From Natronorubrum texcoconense (GTDB lineage Archaea > Halobacteriota > Halobacteria > Halobacteriales > Natrialbaceae), in contig NZ_FNFE01000005.1 of assembly GCF_900100335.1 (NCBI RefSeq), forward strand, positions 1 through 64,000: 64,000 nt of DNA. The letters run 5' to 3'. Below are positions 51,239 through 64,000 of this stretch, in pieces; the stretch's first letter is position 1; every line of letters begins with the position of its first letter. A model generated the notes under the pieces. It was not told where the DNA came from, ran no database searches, and saw only the letters and a list, made by a program, of their open reading frames with translations. A program made the translations under genes and the position numbers.

Positions 51239-52693
51239 ATGGCTCAACGTATCCAATCGAGCGGCGCGATCGATCCCGACGATATCACGATCGCCTATCT
51301 CGGCGGTGGAAGTCGACAGTGGGCACCGAATCTCATCCAGGACCTCGCACAGTCCGACCTCGACGGTCGGGTTCGGCTCTACGACGAATACTACGAGAGC
51401 GCAGCGCGGAACGCGCGCTTTGGAAACTGGGTGCAAGAACGGGACGGTGCCGTCGCGGACTGGTCGTACGAGGCGACGGATTCCCTCGAAACGGCGCTCG
51501 CGGGCGCGGACGTTGTCATCCTCTCCACGCAGTACGATCCGGCCGAGACGTTCGTCCACGATCTCGACATCCCCGAACGCTACGGCATTTACGGCGCGGT
51601 CGCGGCGACCATCGGCCCCGGTGGCATCTTCCGGGCGATGAGAACGGTGCCGCTTTACCGCACGTTCGCCGCCGCGATCCGCGAGCACTGCCCCGACGCG
51701 TGGGTGTTCAACTACACGAACCCCGTCCACTTCGTAACGCGGGCATTGTACGACGAGTACCCCGAAATCAACGCGCTCGGCCTCTGTCACGAGGTGCTCG
51801 GCACCCGCCACCGCCTCGCGCGCTACGCTCGAGAACAGCTCGACATGGACGCCGAGCGAAGCGATATTTCGGTCAACGTCAAGGGAATCAACCACTTCAC
51901 GTGGGTCGACGAGGCCCGCTGTAAGGGCGTCGACCTCTGGCCAGTGCTCGAGGAGCTTCGAGACGGCCCAGAGGGTCATCAGACGTTCACACCAGAGGAT
52001 CTGGCCGACGACAGCGTCTTCGTCGATCACTGGCAGGTGACCTGGGAGCTGTTCCGCCGATTCGGCGTGCTTCCCGCCGCGGGCGACCGTCATCTCGTCG
52101 AGTACGCGACCTGGTTCATTCAGGGCGGCCAGGAGGGGCTCAATCGCTGGGGCGTCAAGCGCACGGGAAGCGACTACCGAGCCAAACACTGGACGCCCGC
52201 CGAATCGGATCAGACGACCGACGTCGAGGCGTGGATGGCGGGCGACCGCGAGTTCGAACTGAGCGAATCCGACGAAGTCTTCGTCGACATCCTCGCGGGG
52301 CTCGCAGGACAGGCGGAGTACGTCACGAACGTCAACCTCCCTAACACCGGGCAGGTATCGGACCTGCAGGATGGTGCCGTCGTCGAAACGAATGCGCTCG
52401 TCAGCGCCGACGAGGTGAAACCGATGACCGCCGGCGGGTTCCCGCGCCCGGTCCGGAGTCTGCTTCGCGGCCACATCGACACCATCGAGACGGTGATCGA
52501 GGCGTCCGCCGACGGCGATCTCGACGCCGCGTTTCAGGGGTTCCTCATCGATCAGCAGATCCGCACCTTACAAACCGAGGACGCACGAGAGCTGTTCGCG
52601 GAACTGGTCGCCGCACAGGAGTCGTATTTGCAGGATTGGGACCTCGAGGAGGCCGCCGTCCTCGAGGAAGCGTCGGCGTATCCGGCCGAGTGA
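51239..52693 (+). CDS. GH4 hydrolase with CHEV motif, candidate alpha-glucuronidase
   Basis: A 484-residue GH4 enzyme needing NAD+ and Mn2+. The NAD site is IAYLGGGSRQW at residues 18-28, NYTNP is at 158-162, and the metal-binding cysteine and histidine are C183 (GLCHEV) and H219 (GINHFTW). In this family the residues after the cysteine track specificity. CHS goes with alpha-glucosidase/galactosidase. As I recall, CHEV goes with the Thermotoga alpha-glucuronidase. No GH67 or GH115 glucuronidase is visible although glucuronate genes are present, so this enzyme would fill the gap. Lack of a signal peptide means it acts inside the cell. Confidence 0.8.
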   Translation: MAQRIQSSGAIDPDDITIAYLGGGSRQWAPNLIQDLAQSDLDGRVRLYDEYYESAARNARFGNWVQERDGAVADWSYEATDSLETALAGADVVILSTQYDPAETFVHDLDIPERYGIYGAVAATIGPGGIFRAMRTVPLYRTFAAAIREHCPDAWVFNYTNPVHFVTRALYDEYPEINALGLCHEVLGTRHRLARYAREQLDMDAERSDISVNVKGINHFTWVDEARCKGVDLWPVLEELRDGPEGHQTFTPEDLADDSVFVDHWQVTWELFRRFGVLPAAGDRHLVEYATWFIQGGQEGLNRWGVKRTGSDYRAKHWTPAESDQTTDVEAWMAGDREFELSESDEVFVDILAGLAGQAEYVTNVNLPNTGQVSDLQDGAVVETNALVSADEVKPMTAGGFPRPVRSLLRGHIDTIETVIEASADGDLDAAFQGFLIDQQIRTLQTEDARELFAELVAAQESYLQDWDLEEAAVLEEASAYPAE

Positions 52694-52838: not shown

Positions 52839-54899
52839 TCAGACGTGCTCGTCGTCGTCGACCGATTTCGCGTGGCGCGCTCTGATTCGCGGGTTGCTGA
52901 TCCGGTCTAATGCCTGTGCGATGAGGATCAGTCCCATCGAGAGCCCGATGATGAACAGCGTCGGGGCGAGGATGTAGTGGACCTGTCCGATGGAGTAGAG
53001 CGAGTGTGCCTCCTCTGCGTTGTTGAGGACGACACCCCAGTTCTGCGTGCTGACCGGGAGGAAGCCCAGGTAGTACAGGGCGACCGAGGCGAAGATGATG
53101 TTGCGCGCGTGGTTTGCGAGGTTGATGAGGACGTAGGGCCAGATGTTCGGCAGGATATCCTTGAGGATCGTCGAAACTGTGCCGACGCCCATCGCGCGTG
53201 CCGCTTCGACGTACTCCTGGCTTCTCACTTTGAGCACTTCGGAGCGGATCGAGCGCCCGAGTCCACCCCAGGCGGCGACGGAGAGGACGAGCCCGACCAT
53301 CGCCGGATGGCGCGGTTCGATGATCGCCGCGATGACGATGATCAGGGGGAGACCGGGGATCGAGACGACGATGTCACAGAGCGTCATGAGGATCCGATCG
53401 GTGGTCCCGCCGCGGAATCCGGCGGTCGCGCCGACGCTGACGCCGAGCGTGACCGTCGCGAGTGCACCGGCGGTGATCATGATCAGTACGGGCGTCGTCC
53501 CAGTGACCATCAACGAGAGGACGTCCGTTCCGGTGTTCGTGGTTCCAAGCGGGTGAGCGAGGACGCCGTCCAGCGGCGAAATCCACGTTTCGAACGTGGC
53601 TGTCGGGCTGTGGACGAATCGGGGTCCGAAGATACCGAGTAAGAAGAACGAAATCGTGATAGTGACCCCGAGGAACCCGCGCCAGTCGCTCAGCACGATC
53701 TTCGCGGGCGCGTATATCGACCGGTCGAACTTTCGGTACAGCACCTCCTTTCGATTGACGTCGATTTCGGTTTCCTCGCCGAAGAACGCGTGTTTGGTAG
53801 TGCCGCCGTCCGCCCGCGGTTCTTTGGTTTTGTTCGTCAGTCGCTTGACGTAGCGTTTGAACTGCGTCCGGAGCGGAACGCCGGCCGAACTGCCGTACAC
53901 CTGCATGTTGTCTCCGCCGGTTTTCGCCCGCGGGTCGATGCGACTGTACGTGAGGTCGGCGACGAACATCGCGATAACGACCGTGATACAGATGACCGTA
54001 AACCCGCCGACCATGAGCGGGTAGTCGCGGTTCTCGACGCCCTCGAACATGTACCACCCCATCCCGCGATAGGTGAAGATGTCCTCGAGGATAATCGACC
54101 CGCCGATCATGAACCCGATCGTCAGTAGCAGACCCGTGTAGAGCGGGAGCAAGGCGTTTCGCATGACGTATCGGAGTGCGATTCTCGTCGGCGGCAGTCC
54201 GCGGAGACGAGCGACCCGGATGTGATCGGCACCGAGGACGCTGATCGAATTGCCACGCATACTGAGGGACGCGGCCGCGCCCGTCACGATTAACGAGAGG
54301 ATCGGTAACGTAGCGTGATGTAACGCGCCGAGAACGAACTCGGCGTTGAGTCCGATATCTGCGCCACCGGGGTATCGCGCACCGGTCGGGAACCAACCCA
54401 GCTGGTACGCGAAGACGAACGACAGGAGGAGCGCGGCGACGTAGTACGGCGTCGAGCTCTCGATGACGGCGACGGCGGTCATCACTGTGTCGAACTTCGA
54501 GCCCTCGTAGTAGGCCATGATCGCCCCGAGACAGATGCTCGTCACGAACGTGATGATCATCGCGATGGACATGTAGAAAATCGTCCACGGCACCGCCTCG
54601 GCGAGGATCTGGTTGACTGATTGGTTCTGAGACAACGAGTGTCCGAGATCACCCTGCAACATCGCAGTCATGTACTCGATGTACTGGACGTGCATCGGGT
54701 CGTCAGGATGAATGTTTATCGTCAGTTCGACCAGTCGTCGAGCGGCATCCGGATTGTTCGGATTGTCCGCCAGCATCTGCGCGTACATCGCCTCGAACGG
54801 GTTCCCGGGCATGAACCGTACGAGCGCGAACGTCAGATGGAACACGACGAGTACTGTTAACACACCCTGGCCGATTCGCTTGATTAGCCAGTTAGACAT
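52839..54899 (-). CDS. Fused DppB-DppC oligopeptide-type ABC permease
   Basis: A 686-residue protein joining two complete permeases. Residues 1-330 are DppB-like (LIKRIGQGVLTVLVVFHLTFAL at the start, docking loop RVARLRGLPPTRIALRYVMRNALLP). A polar linker at about 331-400 follows. The rest is DppC-like (docking loop EAARAMGVGTVSTILKDILPNIWP). They are normally separate genes. Met332, just after DPRAKTGGDN, could be the start of an ancestral DppC, but the frame is continuous. No binding protein or ATPase gene lies beside it. In this neighbourhood the cargo may be xylo-oligosaccharides, which related importers carry in haloarchaea and Thermotoga. Confidence 0.87.
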   Translation of the reverse strand: MSNWLIKRIGQGVLTVLVVFHLTFALVRFMPGNPFEAMYAQMLADNPNNPDAARRLVELTINIHPDDPMHVQYIEYMTAMLQGDLGHSLSQNQSVNQILAEAVPWTIFYMSIAMIITFVTSICLGAIMAYYEGSKFDTVMTAVAVIESSTPYYVAALLLSFVFAYQLGWFPTGARYPGGADIGLNAEFVLGALHHATLPILSLIVTGAAASLSMRGNSISVLGADHIRVARLRGLPPTRIALRYVMRNALLPLYTGLLLTIGFMIGGSIILEDIFTYRGMGWYMFEGVENRDYPLMVGGFTVICITVVIAMFVADLTYSRIDPRAKTGGDNMQVYGSSAGVPLRTQFKRYVKRLTNKTKEPRADGGTTKHAFFGEETEIDVNRKEVLYRKFDRSIYAPAKIVLSDWRGFLGVTITISFFLLGIFGPRFVHSPTATFETWISPLDGVLAHPLGTTNTGTDVLSLMVTGTTPVLIMITAGALATVTLGVSVGATAGFRGGTTDRILMTLCDIVVSIPGLPLIIVIAAIIEPRHPAMVGLVLSVAAWGGLGRSIRSEVLKVRSQEYVEAARAMGVGTVSTILKDILPNIWPYVLINLANHARNIIFASVALYYLGFLPVSTQNWGVVLNNAEEAHSLYSIGQVHYILAPTLFIIGLSMGLILIAQALDRISNPRIRARHAKSVDDDEHV

Positions 54900-55484: not shown

Positions 55485-57806
55485 GTGACACGAGAACAGT
55501 CCACTGCCACGTACCGTGACGAGACGGCATCCGTCTCGGTACGGGTCGAGGATCTCCTCGAGCGAATGACGCTCGAAGAAAAGGCCGCACAGCTCGGTTC
55601 AGTCAACGCCGATCGGTTGCTCGACGACGGAGCGCTCGACACCGAGGCAGTCGAGGAGTGGCTCGAGCACGGAATCGGCCACTTCACCCGCCTCGGCGGG
55701 GAAGGCGGACTCTCGCCGACGGACGCCGCGAGGGTCACGAACGAACTGCAGTCGTACCTGCGCGAGGAGACGCGCCTCGGGATTCCCGCAATCCCCCACG
55801 AGGAGTGTCTCAGCGGCTACATGGGACCGGAGGCGACGACGTTCCCGCAGATGCTCGGCATGGCGAGTAGCTGGAACGCCGATCTTCTGCAGACCGTCAC
55901 CGGAACGATTCGCGGCGAACTCGAGGGAATCGGCACGGTTCACGCGTTGTCGCCAGTACTCGACGTCGCTCGCGACCTTCGGTGGGGCCGCGTCGAGGAG
56001 ACCTTCGGCGAGGATCCGTATCTGGTGTCGGAGATGGCACGCGCATACGTGAACGGATTACAGGGAGAGGGCCGTGCAGACGGCATCTCGGCGACGCTGA
56101 AACACTTCGTCGGTCACGGGTCGACCGACGGCGGGAAGAACCGTTCGTCGCTCAACGTCGGCATGCGGGAGCTCCGCGAAACGCACCTGTTCCCCTACGA
56201 GGCCGTTATCAGCGAGGCGAACGCCGAATCGGTGATGAACGCCTACCACGATATCGACGGCGTTCCGTGTGTCACCAACGAGTGGCTGCTGACCGATCTG
56301 CTGCGCGGCGAGTTCGGCTTCGACGGTACCGTGGTCTCTGACTACTACAGCGTTCGGCACTTAGAGACCGAGCACGGGACCATCAACACGAAACAGGAGG
56401 GTGCTGTCGCCTCGATCGAGGCCGGTCTCGACGTGGAACTGCCGTACACGGAGTACTTCGGCGAACACCTCGTCAACGCCGTCGAGGACGGCGACCTCGC
56501 CGAGGAAACCCTCGACGAAGCGGTCCGTCGCGTCCTCCGAGAGAAGTTCCGGAAAGGCGTCTTCGACGCGGGCGAGATCGACGAGGATGCGGCGGCAGAC
56601 GCGTTCCACACCGACGAGGCCCGCGAGATCACCCGAGAAGCGGCTCGCCAGTCCATGACGCTGCTCAAGAACGAGGGCGACCTCCTCCCCCTCGACGTCG
56701 ACTCCGTCGCGGTCGTGGGGCCGAAAGCCGACGACCCGAAGGAGCTGATGGGCGACTACGCCTACGCGGCCCACTACCCCGAGGAGGAGTACGAAGCCGA
56801 CGCGATCACGCCGCTCGAGGCGCTCGAGTGGCGCGACGACGTCGATGTCTCCTACGAGCAGGGGTGTACCATCTCCGGCCCCTCGACCGACGGCTTCGAT
56901 GCGGCGACCGAGGTTGCCGAAGACGCAGACGTTGCGCTGGCGTTCGTCGGCGCTCGCTCCGCGGTCGACTTCTCCGACGTCGACGCCGAGAAAGCGGAAA
57001 AACCGAGCGTCCCGACCAGCGGCGAAGGCTGTGACATGACCCATCTCAGGCTCCCTGGCGTCCAGGAAGATCTCGTCGCGGAACTGCTCGAGACGGGAAC
57101 GCCGGTCGTGGTCGTGCTCGTCAGCGGCAAGCCTCACGCGATCGAGTGGATGGCCGAGGACGTCCCCGCGATCCTCTACGCGTGGCTGCCTGGCGACGAG
57201 GGCGGCCCGGCCATCGTCGAAACGCTGTTCGGCGAGAACAACCCTGCCGGAAAGCTCCCCGTCTCCCTGCCCAAGTCCGTCGGGCAACTCCCGGTCTACT
57301 ACAACCGGAAGGCCAACACGGCGAACAAGGATTACGTCTACACCGACAGCGAGCCGGTGTACCCGTTCGGGCACGGCCTGAGCTACGCCGAATTCGAGTA
57401 CGGCGATATTTCGCTGTCGTCCGACAGCGCCACGCCGCTCGAGTCGGTCACCGCGAGCGTGACGGTCACGAATACGGGCGAGCGCGCCGGCGACGAAGTC
57501 GTTCAGCTGTACACGCACGCTGTGAATCCGAGCCAGGCCCGTCCGGTGCAGGAACTGCTCGGCTTCGAACGCGTTGCCCTCGAGGCTGGCGAGTCCAAGC
57601 GCGTTACCTTCGAGTTCTCTGCGACGCAACTGGCGTTCCACGATCTCGATATGAACCTCACCGTCGAGGAAGGGCCGTACGAGATCCGCGTCGGAAGCTC
57701 CGCGACCGATATCGAGGCAACCGAGGACCTCGAGATCACGGACACGAAGACGGTGCCGAAGACTGCCCGCACGTACTACACGGACTCGGCAGTCGACGCA
57801 GAGTAA
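55485..57806 (+). CDS. GH3 beta-glucosidase/beta-xylosidase
   Basis: A 773-residue GH3 enzyme starting at a GTG. The TIM-barrel domain has LKHFVGHG (K206, H207) and the nucleophile D286 in GTVVSDYYSV. The alpha/beta sandwich domain follows, and a fibronectin-III-like domain ends the protein (VVQLYTHAVNPSQARPVQELLGFERV). With no signal peptide it is probably cytoplasmic and takes xylobiose or other imported oligosaccharides. It stands beside the secreted xylanases, which suggests beta-xylosidase activity, but beta-glucosidase cannot be excluded. Confidence 0.9.
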   Translation: MTREQSTATYRDETASVSVRVEDLLERMTLEEKAAQLGSVNADRLLDDGALDTEAVEEWLEHGIGHFTRLGGEGGLSPTDAARVTNELQSYLREETRLGIPAIPHEECLSGYMGPEATTFPQMLGMASSWNADLLQTVTGTIRGELEGIGTVHALSPVLDVARDLRWGRVEETFGEDPYLVSEMARAYVNGLQGEGRADGISATLKHFVGHGSTDGGKNRSSLNVGMRELRETHLFPYEAVISEANAESVMNAYHDIDGVPCVTNEWLLTDLLRGEFGFDGTVVSDYYSVRHLETEHGTINTKQEGAVASIEAGLDVELPYTEYFGEHLVNAVEDGDLAEETLDEAVRRVLREKFRKGVFDAGEIDEDAAADAFHTDEAREITREAARQSMTLLKNEGDLLPLDVDSVAVVGPKADDPKELMGDYAYAAHYPEEEYEADAITPLEALEWRDDVDVSYEQGCTISGPSTDGFDAATEVAEDADVALAFVGARSAVDFSDVDAEKAEKPSVPTSGEGCDMTHLRLPGVQEDLVAELLETGTPVVVVLVSGKPHAIEWMAEDVPAILYAWLPGDEGGPAIVETLFGENNPAGKLPVSLPKSVGQLPVYYNRKANTANKDYVYTDSEPVYPFGHGLSYAEFEYGDISLSSDSATPLESVTASVTVTNTGERAGDEVVQLYTHAVNPSQARPVQELLGFERVALEAGESKRVTFEFSATQLAFHDLDMNLTVEEGPYEIRVGSSATDIEATEDLEITDTKTVPKTARTYYTDSAVDAE

Positions 57807-58090: not shown

Positions 58091-59293
58091 ATGACAAACG
58101 ACGAGACACACGACGCGAACGCATCGACTGATGAACTAATCGACCGACGCGACTACATGAAAGCGGCGGGAGCAACCGCAGCGGCCGGTCTCGGAATCGG
58201 GGCAATGTCGACTTCGGCTGCAGCCCAGGAAACGCTCACGGAGAACCAACAGACCACCTACGACGGCTCGTTCGTGTCGTTCTGGACCGACACCGACGAC
58301 ACGGTCTCGATGACGCTCGAGGACGGCGGCAGTTACAGCGTCGACTGGCAAAACACCGGCAACTTCGTCGTCGGGATGGGCTGGGATCCCGGTGCGAGCC
58401 GGACGATCGAGTACGATGCCACGCACAACCCATCGGAAAACTCCTATCTCTGCGTCTACGGGTGGACGACGGATCCGCTCGTGGAGTACTACATCATCGA
58501 AAACTACGGCACCTATCGGCCTGGCGACGAAGAACACGGTACCCACCAGAGCGACGGCGGCACGTACGACATCGCCACGTCCGAACGCATCGAAGAGCCG
58601 TCCATCATCGGCACGGCGACGTTCACCCAGTACTGGAGCATCCGCCAGAACTCACGAACCAGCGGCACCATCAACGTCGGCAATCACTTCGACGCCTGGG
58701 AGAACCACGGCCTCGAGTTGGGCGACCACGACTACCAGATTATGGCCGTCGAAGCCTGGGACTACCAGGGTCCCAACAGTGCCTCCGTCTCGTTCGGCGA
58801 AGCCAGCGGTGGTGGTGACCCTGGCGGCGACCCCGGTGACGACGACGGCAACGGCGGCTCCTCCGGAGACCTCGCCGACGGCACCTATGGCATCCAGAAC
58901 GTCAACAGCGGCAAGGGCCTCGACGTCTCCGAAGAGTCGACAGACGACGGCGCGAACATCCAGCAGTACGAGTACTGGGGCGGCACCAACCAGCAGTGGA
59001 ACGTCGAGGACACTGGTGGCGGTGCGTATCGTATCGAGAACGTCAACAGCGGCAACGTCCTCGATGTCGGCGGCGAGTCGGACGGCGCAAACGTCCAGCA
59101 GTACTCGGACCACGGTGGCGACAACCAGCGCTTCTACCTGCACGACCAGGGCAGCGGCCAGTACCACATCCAGCCGGTTCACACCGAGAAGGCACTCGAA
59201 GTCGAAAGCTCCTCGACCGATGACGGTGCCAACGTCCAGCAGTACGAGTGGCACGGCGACGATAACCAGCTCTGGACGTTCGATAACGTCTAA
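58091..59293 (+). CDS. Tat-secreted GH11 endo-1,4-beta-xylanase with ricin-type (CBM13) lectin domain
   Basis: A 400-residue extracellular xylanase. A Tat signal DRRDYMKAAG lies at residues 18-27 and cleavage is expected around 45. Residues 46-236 form the GH11 jelly roll with nucleophile E132 in PLVEYYIIENYGTYRP and acid/base E221 in YQIMAVEAW. A Gly/Asp linker at 238-258 leads to a beta-trefoil lectin of about 140 residues whose three repeats each contain QxxxxxGxxNQxW-like ends (NQQW, NQRF, NQLW). It cuts the xylan backbone outside the cell. GH11 is unusual in archaea. Confidence 0.92.
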   Translation: MTNDETHDANASTDELIDRRDYMKAAGATAAAGLGIGAMSTSAAAQETLTENQQTTYDGSFVSFWTDTDDTVSMTLEDGGSYSVDWQNTGNFVVGMGWDPGASRTIEYDATHNPSENSYLCVYGWTTDPLVEYYIIENYGTYRPGDEEHGTHQSDGGTYDIATSERIEEPSIIGTATFTQYWSIRQNSRTSGTINVGNHFDAWENHGLELGDHDYQIMAVEAWDYQGPNSASVSFGEASGGGDPGGDPGDDDGNGGSSGDLADGTYGIQNVNSGKGLDVSEESTDDGANIQQYEYWGGTNQQWNVEDTGGGAYRIENVNSGNVLDVGGESDGANVQQYSDHGGDNQRFYLHDQGSGQYHIQPVHTEKALEVESSSTDDGANVQQYEWHGDDNQLWTFDNV

Positions 59294-59468: not shown

Positions 59469-61766
59469 GTGGACATGACAAATCCAAACGATCGGGAGGA
59501 GCGAGAGCAATCGTCGTCGGACGGATCGATCCGTCGTCGTCCGTTCTTGGGAACGGTTGGCGCATTTGGCCTCGGAGCGGGATTGGCAGGCCGCGTCGGC
59601 GCGGACGAGGACGGGTGGCCGTCACCGGACGATCACTACTACGCGGAGCTAGTCGGCGACCTTTCACAACTCGACATCCCACCCGGCGAGTTCGTGTGCG
59701 CGGAGAACGAGGCTGACACCTTCGCGACTTACGAACTCGCGGGGGAACACGAGGATCTCGCCGCGCGTGAATCGCTCGATGTTAGCGACGACGATGTCAC
59801 CTTCGTCGAAGCGACCCGCATTTCGGTTGGCGAACTCGAGGACGGGTCGCTTGATCCGTGGGGTGTCACCGTCCAGGCGACGGTCGAGGACCAGGCCGTT
59901 TCGGCCGGCGATACGTTACTCGGCGTGGCGTACGTCCGCAATCCAGGGACGGGTGGCTCGACGGCAGATGTCACGTACAAATCGACCGAGGCGGACAACG
60001 AAGCAGAGAACTACGTCCTGAACGGCGGCATCGCGGCCGGCCAGGAGTGGGAGCGCTACTTCTTCCCGATCGACTTCCAGACGGCCGGCGACGCCGGCGA
60101 GTGGTGGACTGAGTTCTGGGTCGGTATCGAAGGCCAGACCGTCGATATCGGCGGTCTCGCCTTGCTCAACTTCGCACAGGACGTCGACGCCAACGAACTC
60201 CCCTCCTGGGACGACGAGATCGACCTCGAGGACGGCTGGGAAGAAGAAGCGGACGCGCGCATTCAGGAACACCGGACCGCGAATCTCACGGTTTCGGTCA
60301 CCGATGCAGATGGGGACGCGGTCGACGCCGCTGTCGACCTCGAGATGCAAGACCACGAGTTCGCGTTCGGAACGGCCGTCGACGCGAACCGACTTCAGAC
60401 GGATGACGCCGACGGCGAGCAGTACCGAGGGCTGATTCCTGAACTGTTCAACACGACCGTCCTCGAGAACCACCACAAGTGGCGCTTCTTCGAGGACAAT
60501 CAGGAACTGGCCGACGACGCAACCGACTGGATCCTCGAGCAGGACCTCGATATTCGCGGTCACGCCTGTCTGTGGTCGAGCCGAGACTCGAACTCCATCC
60601 CCGAAGACGTCGAGGATGCGATGGACGAAGGCGACGCCGACTACGTCGCAGAGCGCTCGCTCGAGCATATCGAGACGGTCATCGAACACTACGGCGACGA
60701 CATGGAACACTGGGACGTGGTCAACGAGGCAGTCCACGAAACCGAGATGACGGAGGTAATCGACGGTGAAGACGTTGACCCCGTCGAAGCGCCGATACTC
60801 GAGGAGTGGTACGAGACGGCGACGGAGGTCGCTCCCGAGAGCGTCGCACTCGACGTCAACGACTACAACGTGCTCTCCGGTCCCTACGAGGGGACTCGCG
60901 ACGACTACGAGCGCCAGATCGAGTTCCTCGCAGGGGCAGCGGGGGTCGACCTCGGCGGGATCGGCCTGCAGAGTCACTTCAGCCGCGGCGAGCAACTCAC
61001 ACCCGGTGAGATCATGGACGTGCTCGACCGCTACGCCGAGGCCGGCGATGGGGCGCCCCTTCGGATCACCGAGTTCGACATGGCCGATCCGAACTGGCTC
61101 GAGGCGGACAAAGCCGACTTCTTCCACTGGTTCCTCAAGACGATCTACAGTCACCCCGAGATGGAGGATTTCCTCATGTGGGGCTTCTGGGACGACGAAC
61201 ACTGGCAGGACGATGCACCGTTGTTCGACGAAGAGTGGAATCCAAAGCCGACCTACGATGTCTACACCGACCTCGTCTTCGAGGAGTGGTGGACCGACGA
61301 AACGGGCGAGACGAACGCCGACGGTGCGTTCAATGCGACGGCGTTCCTCGGTGAGTACGACCTGACCATTGACGCCGGCGACGGCGAATTCTCGACGTCG
61401 CTCTCGCTCGAGGAACCAACTGACGAGTCGGTCGAAATCACACTCGTCGAGATTGACGTTCGGGGCTCGGGACGCGGCAACGGCCGCGTGCCAGTACACG
61501 TTCACGGCGGAGACGCGTTCGATCCTGCCGATGTCGACTACGACACGGTTCGCTTCGGTGACCCCGACGTCGTTGCAGGCGGCGGCGGGAGCGATGTCGT
61601 TCATCTCCCCGGTGGACCAGGCGACGGGACCGGACGCGGCAACGGCCGTGGCAATTGCTCGCAGATGGTCCATTTCGACGGCGCTGACAGCGAACTCGAG
61701 GACGTTGCGATGATAACCGGCCGAACGGCCGACGGCGACATCATCGTCGGCTTCGACCGGCTGTAA
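59469..61766 (+). CDS. Tat-secreted GH10 endo-1,4-beta-xylanase
   Basis: A 765-residue secreted xylanase (763 if ATG 59475 is the start). A Tat motif RRRPFLG lies at residues 22-28. Residues ~100-240 form a CBM4/9-like binding domain, and ~270-610 the GH10 barrel, with acid/base E420 in DVVNEAVHE and nucleophile E535 in LRITEFDMAD. The tail, from about residue 660, holds VPVHVHGGDAFDPADVDYDTVRFG and TADGDIIVGFDRL, a pattern common at the C-terminus of surface proteins, interrupted by a Gly/Arg-rich stretch with a lone cysteine. It follows GH11 by 175 bases with its own promoter and complements it on substituted xylan. Confidence 0.92.
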   Translation: MDMTNPNDREEREQSSSDGSIRRRPFLGTVGAFGLGAGLAGRVGADEDGWPSPDDHYYAELVGDLSQLDIPPGEFVCAENEADTFATYELAGEHEDLAARESLDVSDDDVTFVEATRISVGELEDGSLDPWGVTVQATVEDQAVSAGDTLLGVAYVRNPGTGGSTADVTYKSTEADNEAENYVLNGGIAAGQEWERYFFPIDFQTAGDAGEWWTEFWVGIEGQTVDIGGLALLNFAQDVDANELPSWDDEIDLEDGWEEEADARIQEHRTANLTVSVTDADGDAVDAAVDLEMQDHEFAFGTAVDANRLQTDDADGEQYRGLIPELFNTTVLENHHKWRFFEDNQELADDATDWILEQDLDIRGHACLWSSRDSNSIPEDVEDAMDEGDADYVAERSLEHIETVIEHYGDDMEHWDVVNEAVHETEMTEVIDGEDVDPVEAPILEEWYETATEVAPESVALDVNDYNVLSGPYEGTRDDYERQIEFLAGAAGVDLGGIGLQSHFSRGEQLTPGEIMDVLDRYAEAGDGAPLRITEFDMADPNWLEADKADFFHWFLKTIYSHPEMEDFLMWGFWDDEHWQDDAPLFDEEWNPKPTYDVYTDLVFEEWWTDETGETNADGAFNATAFLGEYDLTIDAGDGEFSTSLSLEEPTDESVEITLVEIDVRGSGRGNGRVPVHVHGGDAFDPADVDYDTVRFGDPDVVAGGGGSDVVHLPGGPGDGTGRGNGRGNCSQMVHFDGADSELEDVAMITGRTADGDIIVGFDRL

Positions 61767-61897: not shown

Positions 61898-63262
61898 CTA
61901 GAACCCGTACAGTTCGTTCGGTCGTTCGTAGGCGAGTCGCTCGACGAGGTCACGGGCCACGTCCATCGGTATCTGTCCGCGATCGACTTGTTTTCCGACG
62001 ACGTTCGACAAGGAGCGTCTGAACATCTCGAAACGCGAGCCGTAGGAGAGGAGTTTTCGGGAGTCGCTGACCATCCCGGCGTGCTGGGAGAGCAGGTCGA
62101 CCGTGCCGACGTACTCGAGTTGGTGTTCCATACCGAACGGGCTGTCGTTGAACCACCAGGCGGGGCCGATGGTAACGTTGGGGAAGACGCGAGCCATCGT
62201 CGCGATCGTCGGATAGTGGGTCGGGTCGATCGTGTACAGGACCATCTCGGTCTCGCCGTCGAACCGGTTGACGAAGTGCTCGAGCGAGTCGGCGAGTTCG
62301 ACGTCCCCCGTAGAGATGTCGCCGCCGGCCGCGGGACCCAGCCGGTCGAACAGGTCGTCTCGATAGTTACGAACGGGACCGATGTGGAGTTGCGTCACCC
62401 ACCCCTTCTCGGCGTTCAACTCGCCCACGAACTCGAGGAGGAACGCCTGGAAATCCCCGATCTCGCGCTCGGAGAGCGAACCGCCCGCGAGTCCCGTGCG
62501 GAAGACGTCCCGCGCTCGCCGCTCGCTGACGGGACGGGAGGTGGGCTGTTCGATACCCAGGTCGCTGGCCCGGCAGCCGCGCTCGTCGAAGTAGTCGTGG
62601 GTCGCGGCGAGCGCCTCGCAGAAGCCGTCGAACTCGTCGGCGCTGATCCCGGTTGCGGACTCGAGTTCGTCGACGAACGCGATCCACTCGGGTCGGTCGA
62701 TTTTGACCGCGCGGTCCGCCCGCCACGTCGGCACGATATCGACGCCGGACACCTCCTCGGCGGCGCGCTCGTGGTACTCGAGGTCGTCCGTCGGGTCGTC
62801 GGTGCTGCCGACGATTTCGACGTTCATCGCCTCGAGGAGCTGCTGGGGCCGCATATCGTCGTCAGCGAGTTGGGTCCTCGTTTCCGTCCAGATCTCGTCG
62901 GCCGTGTCCGCCGAAATCGATTTCTCGATCCCGAACCGGCGCTGTAGATCGAGGTGGACCCACTCGTAGGTCGGGTTGCCGGCGAACCGCGGGAACACTT
63001 CCGCGAGCGCGTTCCACTTCTCGCGATTGGGCGCGTCGCCGGTGATCAGTTCCTCGTCGACGCCGCAGTTGCGCATCAGCGCCCAGACGTAGTGATCCGT
63101 GGCGGCCTCGACCTCCCAGATGTCGTTCCAGCCGTCGTTTTCGACGATCTCGGCGACGTCCACGTGGGTGTGGGCGTCGACGATCGGAAGGTCCGCGATT
63201 TCGTCGTACAGTTCTCGCGCGGCGTCCGTCTCGAGCAGATAGTCCTCACCGAGGAAACTCAT
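61898..63262 (-). CDS. uxaC: Glucuronate isomerase
   Basis: A 454-residue UxaC protein that converts D-glucuronate to D-fructuronate (and galacturonate to tagaturonate). The N-terminal metal site is PIVDAHTHVD, the substrate region is YEWVHLDLQRRFGIE, and VGSTDDPTDDLEYH is a clear family signature. RGQIPMDVARDLVERLAYERPNELYGF ends the protein. It is convergent with GH10 and divergent from the LLM-class gene. The downstream enzymes UxuB-like SDR and UxuA are encoded 18 and 31 kb away, so the pathway is scattered over the locus. Confidence 0.92.
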   Translation of the reverse strand: MSFLGEDYLLETDAARELYDEIADLPIVDAHTHVDVAEIVENDGWNDIWEVEAATDHYVWALMRNCGVDEELITGDAPNREKWNALAEVFPRFAGNPTYEWVHLDLQRRFGIEKSISADTADEIWTETRTQLADDDMRPQQLLEAMNVEIVGSTDDPTDDLEYHERAAEEVSGVDIVPTWRADRAVKIDRPEWIAFVDELESATGISADEFDGFCEALAATHDYFDERGCRASDLGIEQPTSRPVSERRARDVFRTGLAGGSLSEREIGDFQAFLLEFVGELNAEKGWVTQLHIGPVRNYRDDLFDRLGPAAGGDISTGDVELADSLEHFVNRFDGETEMVLYTIDPTHYPTIATMARVFPNVTIGPAWWFNDSPFGMEHQLEYVGTVDLLSQHAGMVSDSRKLLSYGSRFEMFRRSLSNVVGKQVDRGQIPMDVARDLVERLAYERPNELYGF

Positions 63263-63285
63263 TGTCTACCGTTTCCAGTGAATCG

Positions 63286-63293
63286 GATTAAAA
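63286..63293 (-). promoter_or_regulatory. TATA box of uxaC
   Basis: On the minus strand TTTTAATC lies 24-31 bases before the ATG at 63262. Confidence 0.5.
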
Positions 63294-63389
63294 CTACGGG
63301 TGCGATCCCCCCGACTCGATCGATTCGGTTTCGCGTGGGATGACCGGTCGATTGACGTCGCCCGACAAGCCGGGTTGAAAATGCCCACC

Positions 63390-63395
63390 TATTTA
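63390..63395 (+). promoter_or_regulatory. TATA box of the LLM-class gene
   Basis: TATTTA lies 26-31 bases before the ATG at 63421. Confidence 0.5.
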
Positions 63396-63420
63396 CTGCA
63401 GGTCTCCGAATGTCACGTCG

Positions 63421-64000
63421 ATGAATGGCTCCGATTCGAACGACCTGACCTTCGGCTGTCAGGTCGTCGCGTACGGCGACGTCAACGGAACGATCGAACA
63501 GGCGAAACGCGCCGAGGATGCGGGGTTCGACGTTCTCACGCTTCCCGACCACCTGTTTCACCCGACCGGGTCCGAGGAGTTCCTCGTCGAACCGCCGTGG
63601 GAGGCGTTTACCGTCCTCGGCGCGATCGCACAGCACACCGAGCGAGCGACCCTGATGCCGGGCGTCACCGACTCGGTGCGACGGCATCCGACGGAGCTCG
63701 CACACGCCGTCGCGACGCTCGATCGGATGACCAACGGACGTGCGGGCCTCGGGATCGGCGCGGGTGAGGCGTTCAACTTCGTACCGATCGGAGATATCGA
63801 CTGGGACGACCCGTTCACGCGGTTCGTCGAGGCGGTGAAGGTCGTCGACGGCCTCTGGACGTCCACGCCGGACGAGTGCTTCTCGTTCGACGGCGAGTTC
63901 TTCCAGCTCGAGGACGCACACATGGGCCTCAAGCCGGTCCAGAAGCCACGGCCGCCGCTGTGGGTCGGCGGCTACGGTCCCAGCATGCGCGGCTTTGCGG
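63421..64000 (+). CDS. LLM-class F420-type oxidoreductase, N-terminal part
   Basis: The first 193 codons of a luciferase-like monooxygenase-fold protein; the rest is beyond the right edge. It opens LTFGCQVVAYGDVNGTIEQAKRAEDAGFDVLTLPDH and carries LATLDRMTNGRAGLGIGAGEAFN and GLKPVQKPRPPLWVGGYGP, typical of F420-dependent members in archaea. Haloarchaea make F420, so that cofactor is more likely than FMN. It is divergent from uxaC. Its substrate is unknown; a sugar or alcohol dehydrogenase role is possible. Confidence 0.85.
   Translation, partial: MNGSDSNDLTFGCQVVAYGDVNGTIEQAKRAEDAGFDVLTLPDHLFHPTGSEEFLVEPPWEAFTVLGAIAQHTERATLMPGVTDSVRRHPTELAHAVATLDRMTNGRAGLGIGAGEAFNFVPIGDIDWDDPFTRFVEAVKVVDGLWTSTPDECFSFDGEFFQLEDAHMGLKPVQKPRPPLWVGGYGPSMRGFA

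What the first reader, a model, noticed from the sequence alone, without database searches (positions are those of the whole stretch)
58091..59293. Archaeal GH11 xylanase fused to a three-repeat ricin lectin and Tat-exported
GH11 is mainly bacterial and fungal. Here it has complete catalytic glutamates (E132, E221), a Tat signal and a beta-trefoil domain. The combination with folded export into brine is unusual and suggests acquisition from bacteria followed by acidic adaptation.
Basis: partly seen in the sequence, partly recalled or inferred. Interest (0 to 1): 0.55.

Follow-up and report, generated by a model that had tools for sequence, protein, structure and literature searches.

The report
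Haloarchaeal secreted xylanase with sugar-binding tail
This gene encodes an ordinary plant-fibre-cutting enzyme (a xylanase) joined to a sugar-binding tail in a salt-loving archaeon; other haloarchaea share the same design and it is already in print, and what is new is mainly how its pieces have been mixed and passed around.

Summary
The ORF at 58091-59293 encodes 400 aa: a twin-arginine signal (RRDYMK), a complete GH11 domain (E132, E221 aligned with the family's catalytic pair), an acidic linker and a three-repeat ricin/CBM13 trefoil. It sits in a (glucurono)xylan-utilisation island on a 398-kb contig that may be a megaplasmid. The architecture is not unusual among haloarchaeal GH11s: 20 of 391 Halobacteria genomes searched have GH11, and of their 35 copies 18 have this lectin and 35 a twin-Arg motif. 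Halorhabdus GH11s with ricin-type domains are published (PMC7720462), and an 82%-identical Natronoglomus protein matches a GH11 listed there as TAT-exported (PMC10963439). The 35 catalytic domains form one clade (98/89) and the least diverged are 78% identical to an actinobacterial GH11, so bacterial origin is supported. Acidity rises from reference to haloarchaeal copies. The lectin was probably added from a haloarchaeal pool. Catalytic and lectin trees conflict, and the window's GH11 resembles copies from other Natrialbaceae genera (96% catalytic domain) while its flanking permease resembles its congener's (93%); so within haloarchaea the gene has moved and been reshuffled. A new member of a known kind; low to moderate interest.

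The parts
58091..59293 (+). GH11 xylanase with C-terminal ricin/CBM13 beta-trefoil, 400 aa
58091..58225 (+). predicted Tat signal peptide, residues 1-45; twin-arginine RRDYMK at 58145-58162; AAA|Q cleavage site judged by eye
   Evidence: sequence; cleavage is inference
58229..58798 (+). GH11 catalytic domain (residues 47-236); nucleophile E132 = 58484-58486, acid/base E221 = 58751-58753
   Evidence: the roles of the two Glu are from GH11 knowledge (recalled)
58799..58870 (+). acidic Gly/Asp-rich linker (residues 237-260)
   Evidence: sequence
58868..59290 (+). ricin-B/CBM13 beta-trefoil, three repeats (about residues 262-309, 313-353, 357-400)
59469..61766 (+). neighbour: GH10 xylanase with twin-Arg N terminus (RRRPFLG)
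55485..57806 (+). neighbour: GH3, beta-xylosidase/arabinosidase-like (below the NCBIfam cut-offs), no evident signal peptide
61898..63262 (-). neighbour: glucuronate isomerase UxaC
52839..54899 (-). neighbour: fused two-part Opp-type ABC permease
51239..52693 (+). neighbour: GH4 glycosidase

Best explanation
It is a Tat-exported, salt-adapted endo-beta-1,4-xylanase of family GH11 whose C-terminal CBM13/ricin-type trefoil keeps it on xylan. Shown by sequence: intact catalytic pair, jelly-roll domain, lectin repeats, twin-Arg signal, and a clustered xylan-utilisation gene set. Inferred: the folded enzyme is exported through Tat, cuts xylan by retaining catalysis (E132 nucleophile, E221 acid/base) outside the cell together with the neighbouring GH10, and the oligosaccharides enter by the Opp-type ABC system for GH3, UxaC and UxuA inside. 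History (inferred): the catalytic domain entered Halobacteria once or a few times from an actinobacteria-like source, the lectin was added from the haloarchaeal CBM13 pool, and the genes then spread between haloarchaea, partly on megaplasmids, with recombination of the two cassettes. The window's copy belongs to the most acidic clade, whose named members Natronoglomus and Natronobiforma are soda-lake genera, and was probably brought into this island together with at least the adjacent GH10.
For: Families. Catalytic Glu. Fold of the catalytic part. Twin-Arg in 35 of 35 haloarchaeal copies (32 of 35 with a stricter pattern). Distribution: 20 of 391 genomes, 12 of 86 genera. One clade of 35 copies, 98/89; 84/90 after dropping D/E-variable columns and the Sphingomonas row. 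Nonomuraea 78% to a Halocatena copy; PMC7720462 section 5 puts Halorhabdus GH11s in a cluster with Thermopolyspora, Thermobifida, Nesterenkonia and Jonesia (that these are actinobacteria is recalled). 18 GH11 lectins form one clade, 99/95. Nearest other lectin listed haloarchaeal. At least 80% of the protein matched in 2 of 72,556 plasmid records, both haloarchaeal. Shared gene set GH4, ABC permease, GH3, GH11, UxaC in G062, G105, G241 and the Halosolutus plasmid. Mosaic: permease 93.1% to congener G270 but catalytic domain 61.2% to G270 and 95.8% to G062. Contig C6: 0 of 43 tRNA hits and one Orc1/Cdc6.
Against: No activity, binding or export was measured. In the tree a weakly supported branch (95/68) joins the haloarchaeal clade to the fungal, gammaproteobacterial and metagenomic rows rather than to the actinobacterial ones, which stay unresolved at the base; the tree is rooted at its midpoint, so the donor rests mainly on identity and on PMC7720462. 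Reference sampling is thin (17 rows), so one versus several transfers is open. In PMC7720462 (passages) Xyn6 could not be made and was dropped, and Xyn4 and Xyn7 were discarded as clearly less active; I did not see which of these were the Halorhabdus enzymes. The lectin data do not reject monophyly of the window clade's four lectins (p-AU 0.138), so plain descent with a fast catalytic domain is possible there. GH3 is only modestly closer to G062 (89.0%) than to Halosolutus (83.7%), so its place in an imported block is weak. C6 as plasmid is circumstantial: 3 other contigs also lack tRNA hits and several with tRNAs also have Cdc6. The lectin AlphaFold model failed (pLDDT 35).
Confidence: 0.85

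Rival explanations
1. The whole GH11+lectin gene was acquired as a fused unit from a bacterium.
For: GH11s followed by CBMs occur in about 15% of sequences in PMC7720462 (section 5); many bacteria have CBM13 lectins.
Against: The only plasmid records that match at least 80% of the protein are haloarchaeal (2 of 72,556); the lectin's nearest non-GH11 relative listed is haloarchaeal (57% against at most 46% for bacterial rows); 0 of 11 bacterial GH11 ORFs show the QxW lectin repeats. Bacterial chromosomes were not searched for the fusion.
Confidence: 0.12
2. Several independent transfers of GH11 from bacteria into haloarchaea, with the window's divergent clade a separate import.
For: The window clade has a long stem (0.51 changes per site) and is less identical to Nonomuraea, 7eo6 and 5ej3 than any other haloarchaeal copy is (against Microbulbifer the ranges overlap); patchy distribution.
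Against: It lies inside the haloarchaeal clade behind successive branches of which most have 98-100 bootstrap support, two being weak (80/0 and 82/63); the archaeal clade survives removal of D/E-variable columns (84/90); none of four references compared is close to it (51-63%).
Confidence: 0.15
3. Vertical descent of one GH11-CBM13 gene within Halobacteria with many losses and no recombination.
For: One archaeal clade; shared island order in several genomes of the window's family.
Against: Present in 20 of 391 genomes and in 2 of the 8 genomes of the window's genus in that sample; copies of the window's family fall in four separate places among those of another family; catalytic and lectin topologies reject each other (p-AU 7.8e-50 and 3.0e-6); G079_2 has a catalytic domain nearest G241 but a congeneric lectin; same-genus G270 has a 61%-identical catalytic domain in an island with a 93%-identical permease.
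Confidence: 0.08
4. The trefoil is not a xylan-binding module but serves something else, such as attachment to cell-surface glycans.
For: CBM13/ricin domains bind varied sugars (recalled); two of three sites depart from the classical pattern (Asp340 in place of an aromatic in 18 of 18, Glu370 in 12 of 18; the functional reading of these positions is recalled).
Against: Site alpha keeps D278, Y295, N300 and Q301 in 18 of 18; solved xylanase CBM13s are among its relatives; [quoted passage not shown]
Confidence: 0.15

Closest known systems
Natronoglomus mannanivorans AArc-m2/3/4 GH11 (locus tag MCU4972+ 2295, 428 aa, PMC10963439 Table 1; L031)
   Same: GH11 + ricin lectin, twin-Arg signal, 82% identical overall; the paper lists a 428-aa extracellular TAT/SPI GH11 xylanase. 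That L031 is this entry is inferred from equal length and family.
   Different: The paper's main text has 0 hits for CBM13 or ricin. L031 and L083 share an adjacent GH10 (69%) but show no GH3, UxaC or close permease match in the stretches read.
[quoted passage not shown]
   Same: Same domain types in a haloarchaeon, already described in print (section 5 and passages).
   Different: I did not have these sequences by name, so no identity is given; the paper's experimental outcome for them is not clear from what I saw.
Halosolutus gelatinilyticus and Halocatena salina megaplasmid GH11 proteins (WP_247004735, WP_247995230)
   Same: Same architecture, on 562-kb and 532-kb plasmids; the Halosolutus one lies with the same gene set.
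   Different: Catalytic domain only 58-61% identical, lectin 69-77%.
Bacterial GH11 xylanases: Nonomuraea flexuosa 1m4w, Thermobifida fusca 3zse, XlnB2 5ej3, 7eo6 (organism of 7eo6 not shown)
   Same: Catalytic domain and catalytic pair.
   Different: Much less acidic as a set (17 references mean D+E 6.5%); 0 of 11 bacterial GH11 ORFs have the lectin repeats.
Xylanase CBM13 domains (1knl, 2d1z; Streptomyces origin recalled) and ThreeFoil (3pg0)
   Same: Three-repeat trefoil; ThreeFoil is the best solved match, E 1.2e-35.
   Different: Not attached to GH11 (2d1z and 1knl are labelled endo-1,4-beta-xylanases; that they are GH10 is recalled).

Membership tests
GH11 xylanase | Match to the family model over the curated cut-off | tested here: met
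   242 bits against 27
GH11 xylanase | Two catalytic Glu in conserved context | tested here: met
   E132, E221
GH11 xylanase | Beta-jelly-roll fold | tested here: met
   AlphaFold catalytic part: ten-residue blocks at pLDDT 65-90 with one at 54; Foldseek 7eo6 TMt 0.95
GH11 xylanase | Endo-beta-1,4-xylanase activity | not testable with these tools
   needs an assay
CBM13 / ricin-B lectin | Three repeats of a beta-trefoil with QxW-like motifs | tested here: met
   two Pfam ricin models over cut-off; QQW, QRF, QLW in the sequence
CBM13 / ricin-B lectin | Predicted fold of the trefoil | tested here: inconclusive
   AlphaFold with 2 rows gave pLDDT 35
CBM13 / ricin-B lectin | Binding of xylan or other glycan | not testable with these tools
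   needs a binding assay
Tat substrate | Twin-Arg motif followed by a hydrophobic stretch and cleavage site | tested here: met
   by sequence pattern and by eye only; twin-Arg in 35 of 35 haloarchaeal copies; no signal-peptide predictor was available
Tat substrate | Export depends on the RR pair | not testable with these tools
   needs an RR-to-KK mutant
Megaplasmid-borne gene | Separate replicon with its own origin protein and no tRNA genes | tested here: inconclusive
   C6: 0 of 43 tRNA hits, one Cdc6_C hit; circularity not known

The most novel reading that the evidence does not exclude
Haloarchaeal GH11 xylanases behave as a two-cassette system: catalytic domains and lectins recombine independently and travel on megaplasmids, so that a conserved island can keep its flanks while its secreted xylanase is exchanged (as in the window against its congener G270), or only its catalytic half is exchanged (as in G079_2).
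Probability: 0.5. Interest if true: 0.4.

Novelty: new member of a known kind. Interest (0 to 1): 0.25.

Why it matters
It shows a bacterial-type xylanase that has been taken over by haloarchaea, given a sugar-binding domain and made strongly acidic. It also gives a small graded series (mean D+E 6.5% in references, 11.4% in other haloarchaeal copies, 16.7% in the window clade) for studying how enzymes become salt-adapted. For practice, the named members of the window clade are soda-lake genera and may hold alkali- and salt-active xylanases; a 2021 review (PMC8458939, passages) knew of no alkaliphilic archaeal xylanase.

Tried and rejected
Fusion acquired whole from bacteria: not favoured, see rivals. 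Composition artefact behind the single archaeal clade: tested by dropping D/E-variable columns (131 kept) and the Sphingomonas row; the clade stays at 84/90, weaker than before, and one changes-count in the bootstrap range reached 2. D+E of the catalytic domain falls with identity to Nonomuraea (Spearman -0.62 over 35 copies), so the branching order inside the clade may be partly driven by composition. Foreign base composition: none seen; the GH11 gene has GC 0.62 and GC3 0.82, neighbours 0.61-0.65 and 0.78-0.86. Holding the window clade's four lectins together is not rejected (p-AU 0.138), nor is adding G241 to that clade in the catalytic tree (0.066), nor adding the G137/G281 copies to it in the lectin tree (0.079); for G079_2, lectin data reject grouping it with G241 weakly (0.038) and with G241 and G270 more clearly (0.0019) (all; groups chosen after seeing the trees). 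Structure of the lectin: failed. Broader bacterial sampling by class of a Microbulbifer genome gave 3 of 229 genomes with GH11, one of them Microbulbifer itself and two distant. A phylum-wide search found 5 of 392 genomes, all of them in the window's order; how many of the 392 lie outside Halobacteria was not shown. The genome-contig scan uses short peptide patterns and returned 5 loci: three haloarchaeal, two gammaproteobacterial. The sigma-70 promoter scan has no bearing on archaea.

Rows dropped before counts: three truncated duplicate rows (G137_3, G281_4, G079_3) and four divergent rows (Cellvibrio_6, Cellvibrio_7, G405, Ruminococcus); Sphingomonas also. G536 did not pass the filter. Architecture labels are regular-expression calls, not Pfam scans. 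The twin-Arg count searches the reading frame from the preceding stop codon to the domain, not from a confirmed start.

Literature: I found no paper that discusses transfer or recombination of GH11 genes among haloarchaea; searches were made, in an open-licence PMC library only. The clustering of Halorhabdus GH11s with Thermobifida and others is in print (PMC7720462). PMC10443357, named in another paper's reference list, is not held. PMC10267330, PMC11212257, PMC13260240, PMC10266531 and PMC11001535 were looked into by passages only and added nothing decisive.

Full report
Observation. The ORF 58091..59293 (+) gives a 400-aa protein. Pfam finds Glyco_hydro_11 at 59-229 (E 3.7e-72) and two ricin-lectin models over 262-399. 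E132 and E221 are Glu at those exact positions and align with the corresponding Glu of solved GH11 xylanases; both are invariant in a 6-row alignment. The N terminus carries DRRDYMK, a hydrophobic stretch and SAAAQ. An AlphaFold model of the whole protein (6 rows) is good only in the catalytic part, which matches GH11 crystal structures (7eo6, TM by target 0.95). A separate model of the lectin failed, so the trefoil rests on sequence: Pfam, and phmmer to solved trefoils (ThreeFoil E 1.2e-35; xylanase CBM13s 1knl, 2d1z and 1isv E 2.5e-16 to 1.9e-13). D+E is 17.5% and K+R 3.0% of the protein.

Genome setting. This is the only GH11 gene found in its genome, and the only RicinB_lectin_2 matches are its own repeats. 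Neighbours are GH4, a fused Opp-type ABC permease, GH3 (xylosidase/arabinosidase-like), GH10 and glucuronate isomerase. A sugar ABC transporter, an IclR regulator and an arabinofuranosidase lie upstream, and UxuA, GH2, a second GH4 and Gfo/Idh oxidoreductases further upstream. Two further GH10 genes lie just beyond the window. This reads as a (glucurono)arabinoxylan-utilisation island. Its contig, C6 of 398,115 bases, holds 0 of the genome's 43 tRNA hits and one Orc1/Cdc6 gene. That suggests but does not prove an extrachromosomal replicon: C1, C8 and C11 also lack tRNA hits, and contigs with tRNAs also have Cdc6.

Distribution. In 391 Halobacteria genomes drawn evenly, 20 have GH11 (12 of 86 genera), 35 copies in all. 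By pattern, 18 of 35 have the ricin tail; the rest have CBM6-like and/or PKD, CBM5/12-like or dockerin tails, or none. A twin-Arg motif precedes the domain in 35 of 35, or 32 of 35 with a stricter pattern. Among 72,556 plasmid records, 86 match somewhere and two match at least 80% of the protein, the Halosolutus gelatinilyticus (562 kb) and Halocatena salina (532 kb) megaplasmids; the former has GH11, GH10, mannonate dehydratase, uxaC, GH3, IclR, permease and GH4 together. In the genus of the window, 2 of 8 genomes in the sample have GH11. Equal contig lengths identify G378, G360, G344 and G104 with Halosolutus, Halocatena, Natronoglomus and Natronobiforma records (inference).

Catalytic-domain tree. 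With 17 non-archaeal reference rows (actinobacterial, fungal, gammaproteobacterial, metagenomic, one Sphingomonas), the 35 haloarchaeal copies form one clade, 98/89, and 84/90 after removal of D/E-variable columns and of Sphingomonas. The tree is rooted at its midpoint. In it the actinobacterial rows stay unresolved at the base, and a weak branch (95/68) joins the archaea to the fungal, gammaproteobacterial and metagenomic rows, so the tree alone does not name the donor. Identity does point to one: Nonomuraea gerenzanensis is 78% identical to a Halocatena copy, which is 53% identical to Microbulbifer, and PMC7720462 clusters Halorhabdus GH11s with Thermopolyspora, Thermobifida, Nesterenkonia and Jonesia (that these are actinobacteria is recalled). 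The window's copy sits in a nine-member clade (100/100, stem 0.51) with Natronoglomus, Natronobiforma, G062 and G105. Mean D+E is 6.5% in the 17 references, 11.4% in 26 other haloarchaeal copies, 16.7% in these nine. So bacterial origin and acidification are both supported; the donor is best described as actinobacteria-like.

Lectin tree and shuffling. The 18 GH11 lectins form one clade, 99/95, among 32 rows. The nearest other lectin listed is haloarchaeal (57%, Halocatena); bacterial ones reach 46% at most in the 50 rows shown of 93 matching records. The deeper order of that tree is weak (20/72). The ML topologies of the two domains, on the same 18 genes, reject each other (p-AU 7.8e-50 on catalytic data, 3.0e-6 on lectin data). 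A clear case is G079_2: catalytic domain 85.5% to G241 of another family, lectin 90.2% to its congener G050_2, and holding its catalytic domain with its congeners is rejected (p-AU 2.5e-5, groups chosen after seeing the trees). For the window clade the picture is less sharp. Against the other clade the lectin is more alike than the catalytic domain in 56 of 56 pairs (means 72.8 and 59.6%), while within the other clade the catalytic domain is the more alike in 46 of 91 pairs (means 77.5 and 77.4%), and within the window clade in 6 of 6. That fits either a catalytic-domain exchange or a burst of change on its stem; lectin data do not reject monophyly of the four lectins (0.138).

Mosaic island. 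Against the same-genus genome G270 and Halosolutus, the permease is 93.1 and 92.6% identical, GH4 93.3 (65% covered) and 87.7 (45% covered), UxaC 86.8 and 87.0, but the GH11 catalytic domain only 61.2 and 60.7. Against G062 and G105 the permease is 78.7 and 79.1, but the catalytic domain 95.8 and 92.1 and the adjacent GH10 80.1 and 85.1; in the stretches read, G270 has no match to that GH10 and Halosolutus only a 26.5% partial one. GH3 is 89.0 and 87.7 to G062 and G105, against 84.5 to G241 and 83.7 to Halosolutus, a modest difference; no GH3 match was found in the G270 stretches. The simplest reading is that at least GH11 and GH10 came as a block from a G062/G105-like lineage into an island of the window's own lineage. 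The gene itself has the island's base composition.

Mechanism. Shown: the parts. Inferred: Tat export of the folded enzyme into brine, where GH11 with the GH10 makes xylo-oligosaccharides; binding through the trefoil; uptake by the Opp-type ABC system; GH3 and UxaC/UxuA act inside. In 18 of 18 lectins repeat alpha keeps D278, Y295, N300 and Q301; repeat beta has Asp340 where the other two have an aromatic; repeat gamma has Trp387 in 18 of 18 with Glu370 (12 of 18) or Asp (6 of 18). From recalled CBM13/ricin binding sites, alpha is the likeliest site and beta the weakest.

Literature. PMC7720462 (section 5 read; [quoted passage not shown] PMC3102087 (passages) reports two GH11 proteins in H. 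utahensis and cites its xylan-degrading activity. PMC10963439 (passages) lists a 428-aa TAT/SPI GH11 in Natronoglomus, the length of the L031 ORF. PMC9726719 (passages) counts GH11 genes in other isolates. PMC8458939 (passages) says that the Halorhabdus utahensis xylanase had activity up to 30% NaCl. Hence architecture, host group and predicted export route are known; this is a further member.

Noticed in passing
L025 (G079_2), minus strand, GH11 match from about 1528: Chimeric haloarchaeal GH11: catalytic domain nearest a copy of another family (G241, 85.5%), lectin nearest its congener G050_2 (90.2%).
   Followed up: partly
window 59027-59149 (lectin repeat beta): Asp340 replaces the aromatic residue that the other two repeats have at this position, in 18 of 18 haloarchaeal GH11 lectins.
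   Followed up: partly
own genome C6, 66481-67422 (+) and 67751-68689 (-), just outside the window: Two further GH10 genes next to the island, making three GH10 and one GH11 on this contig.
   Followed up: no
window 52839-54899 (-): Two Opp-type permease halves are fused in one 686-aa protein (two BPD_transp_1 stretches); G270 and Halosolutus islands match it over its whole length.
   Followed up: no
window 63259-63921 (-): Reading frame without Pfam match next to uxaC, with matches beside uxaC in G270, Halosolutus and G241 (58-73%); in Halosolutus it overlaps a gene annotated as an LLM-class oxidoreductase on the opposite strand, so it is probably not a gene in this frame.
   Followed up: partly
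Haloterrigena, Natrinema, Halarchaeum, Halocatena, Halomontanus and Halomicrobium plasmid records: CBM13/ricin modules are attached to proteins annotated as GH32, GH43, GH97 or simply RICIN-domain on several haloarchaeal plasmids: a shared module pool.
   Followed up: partly
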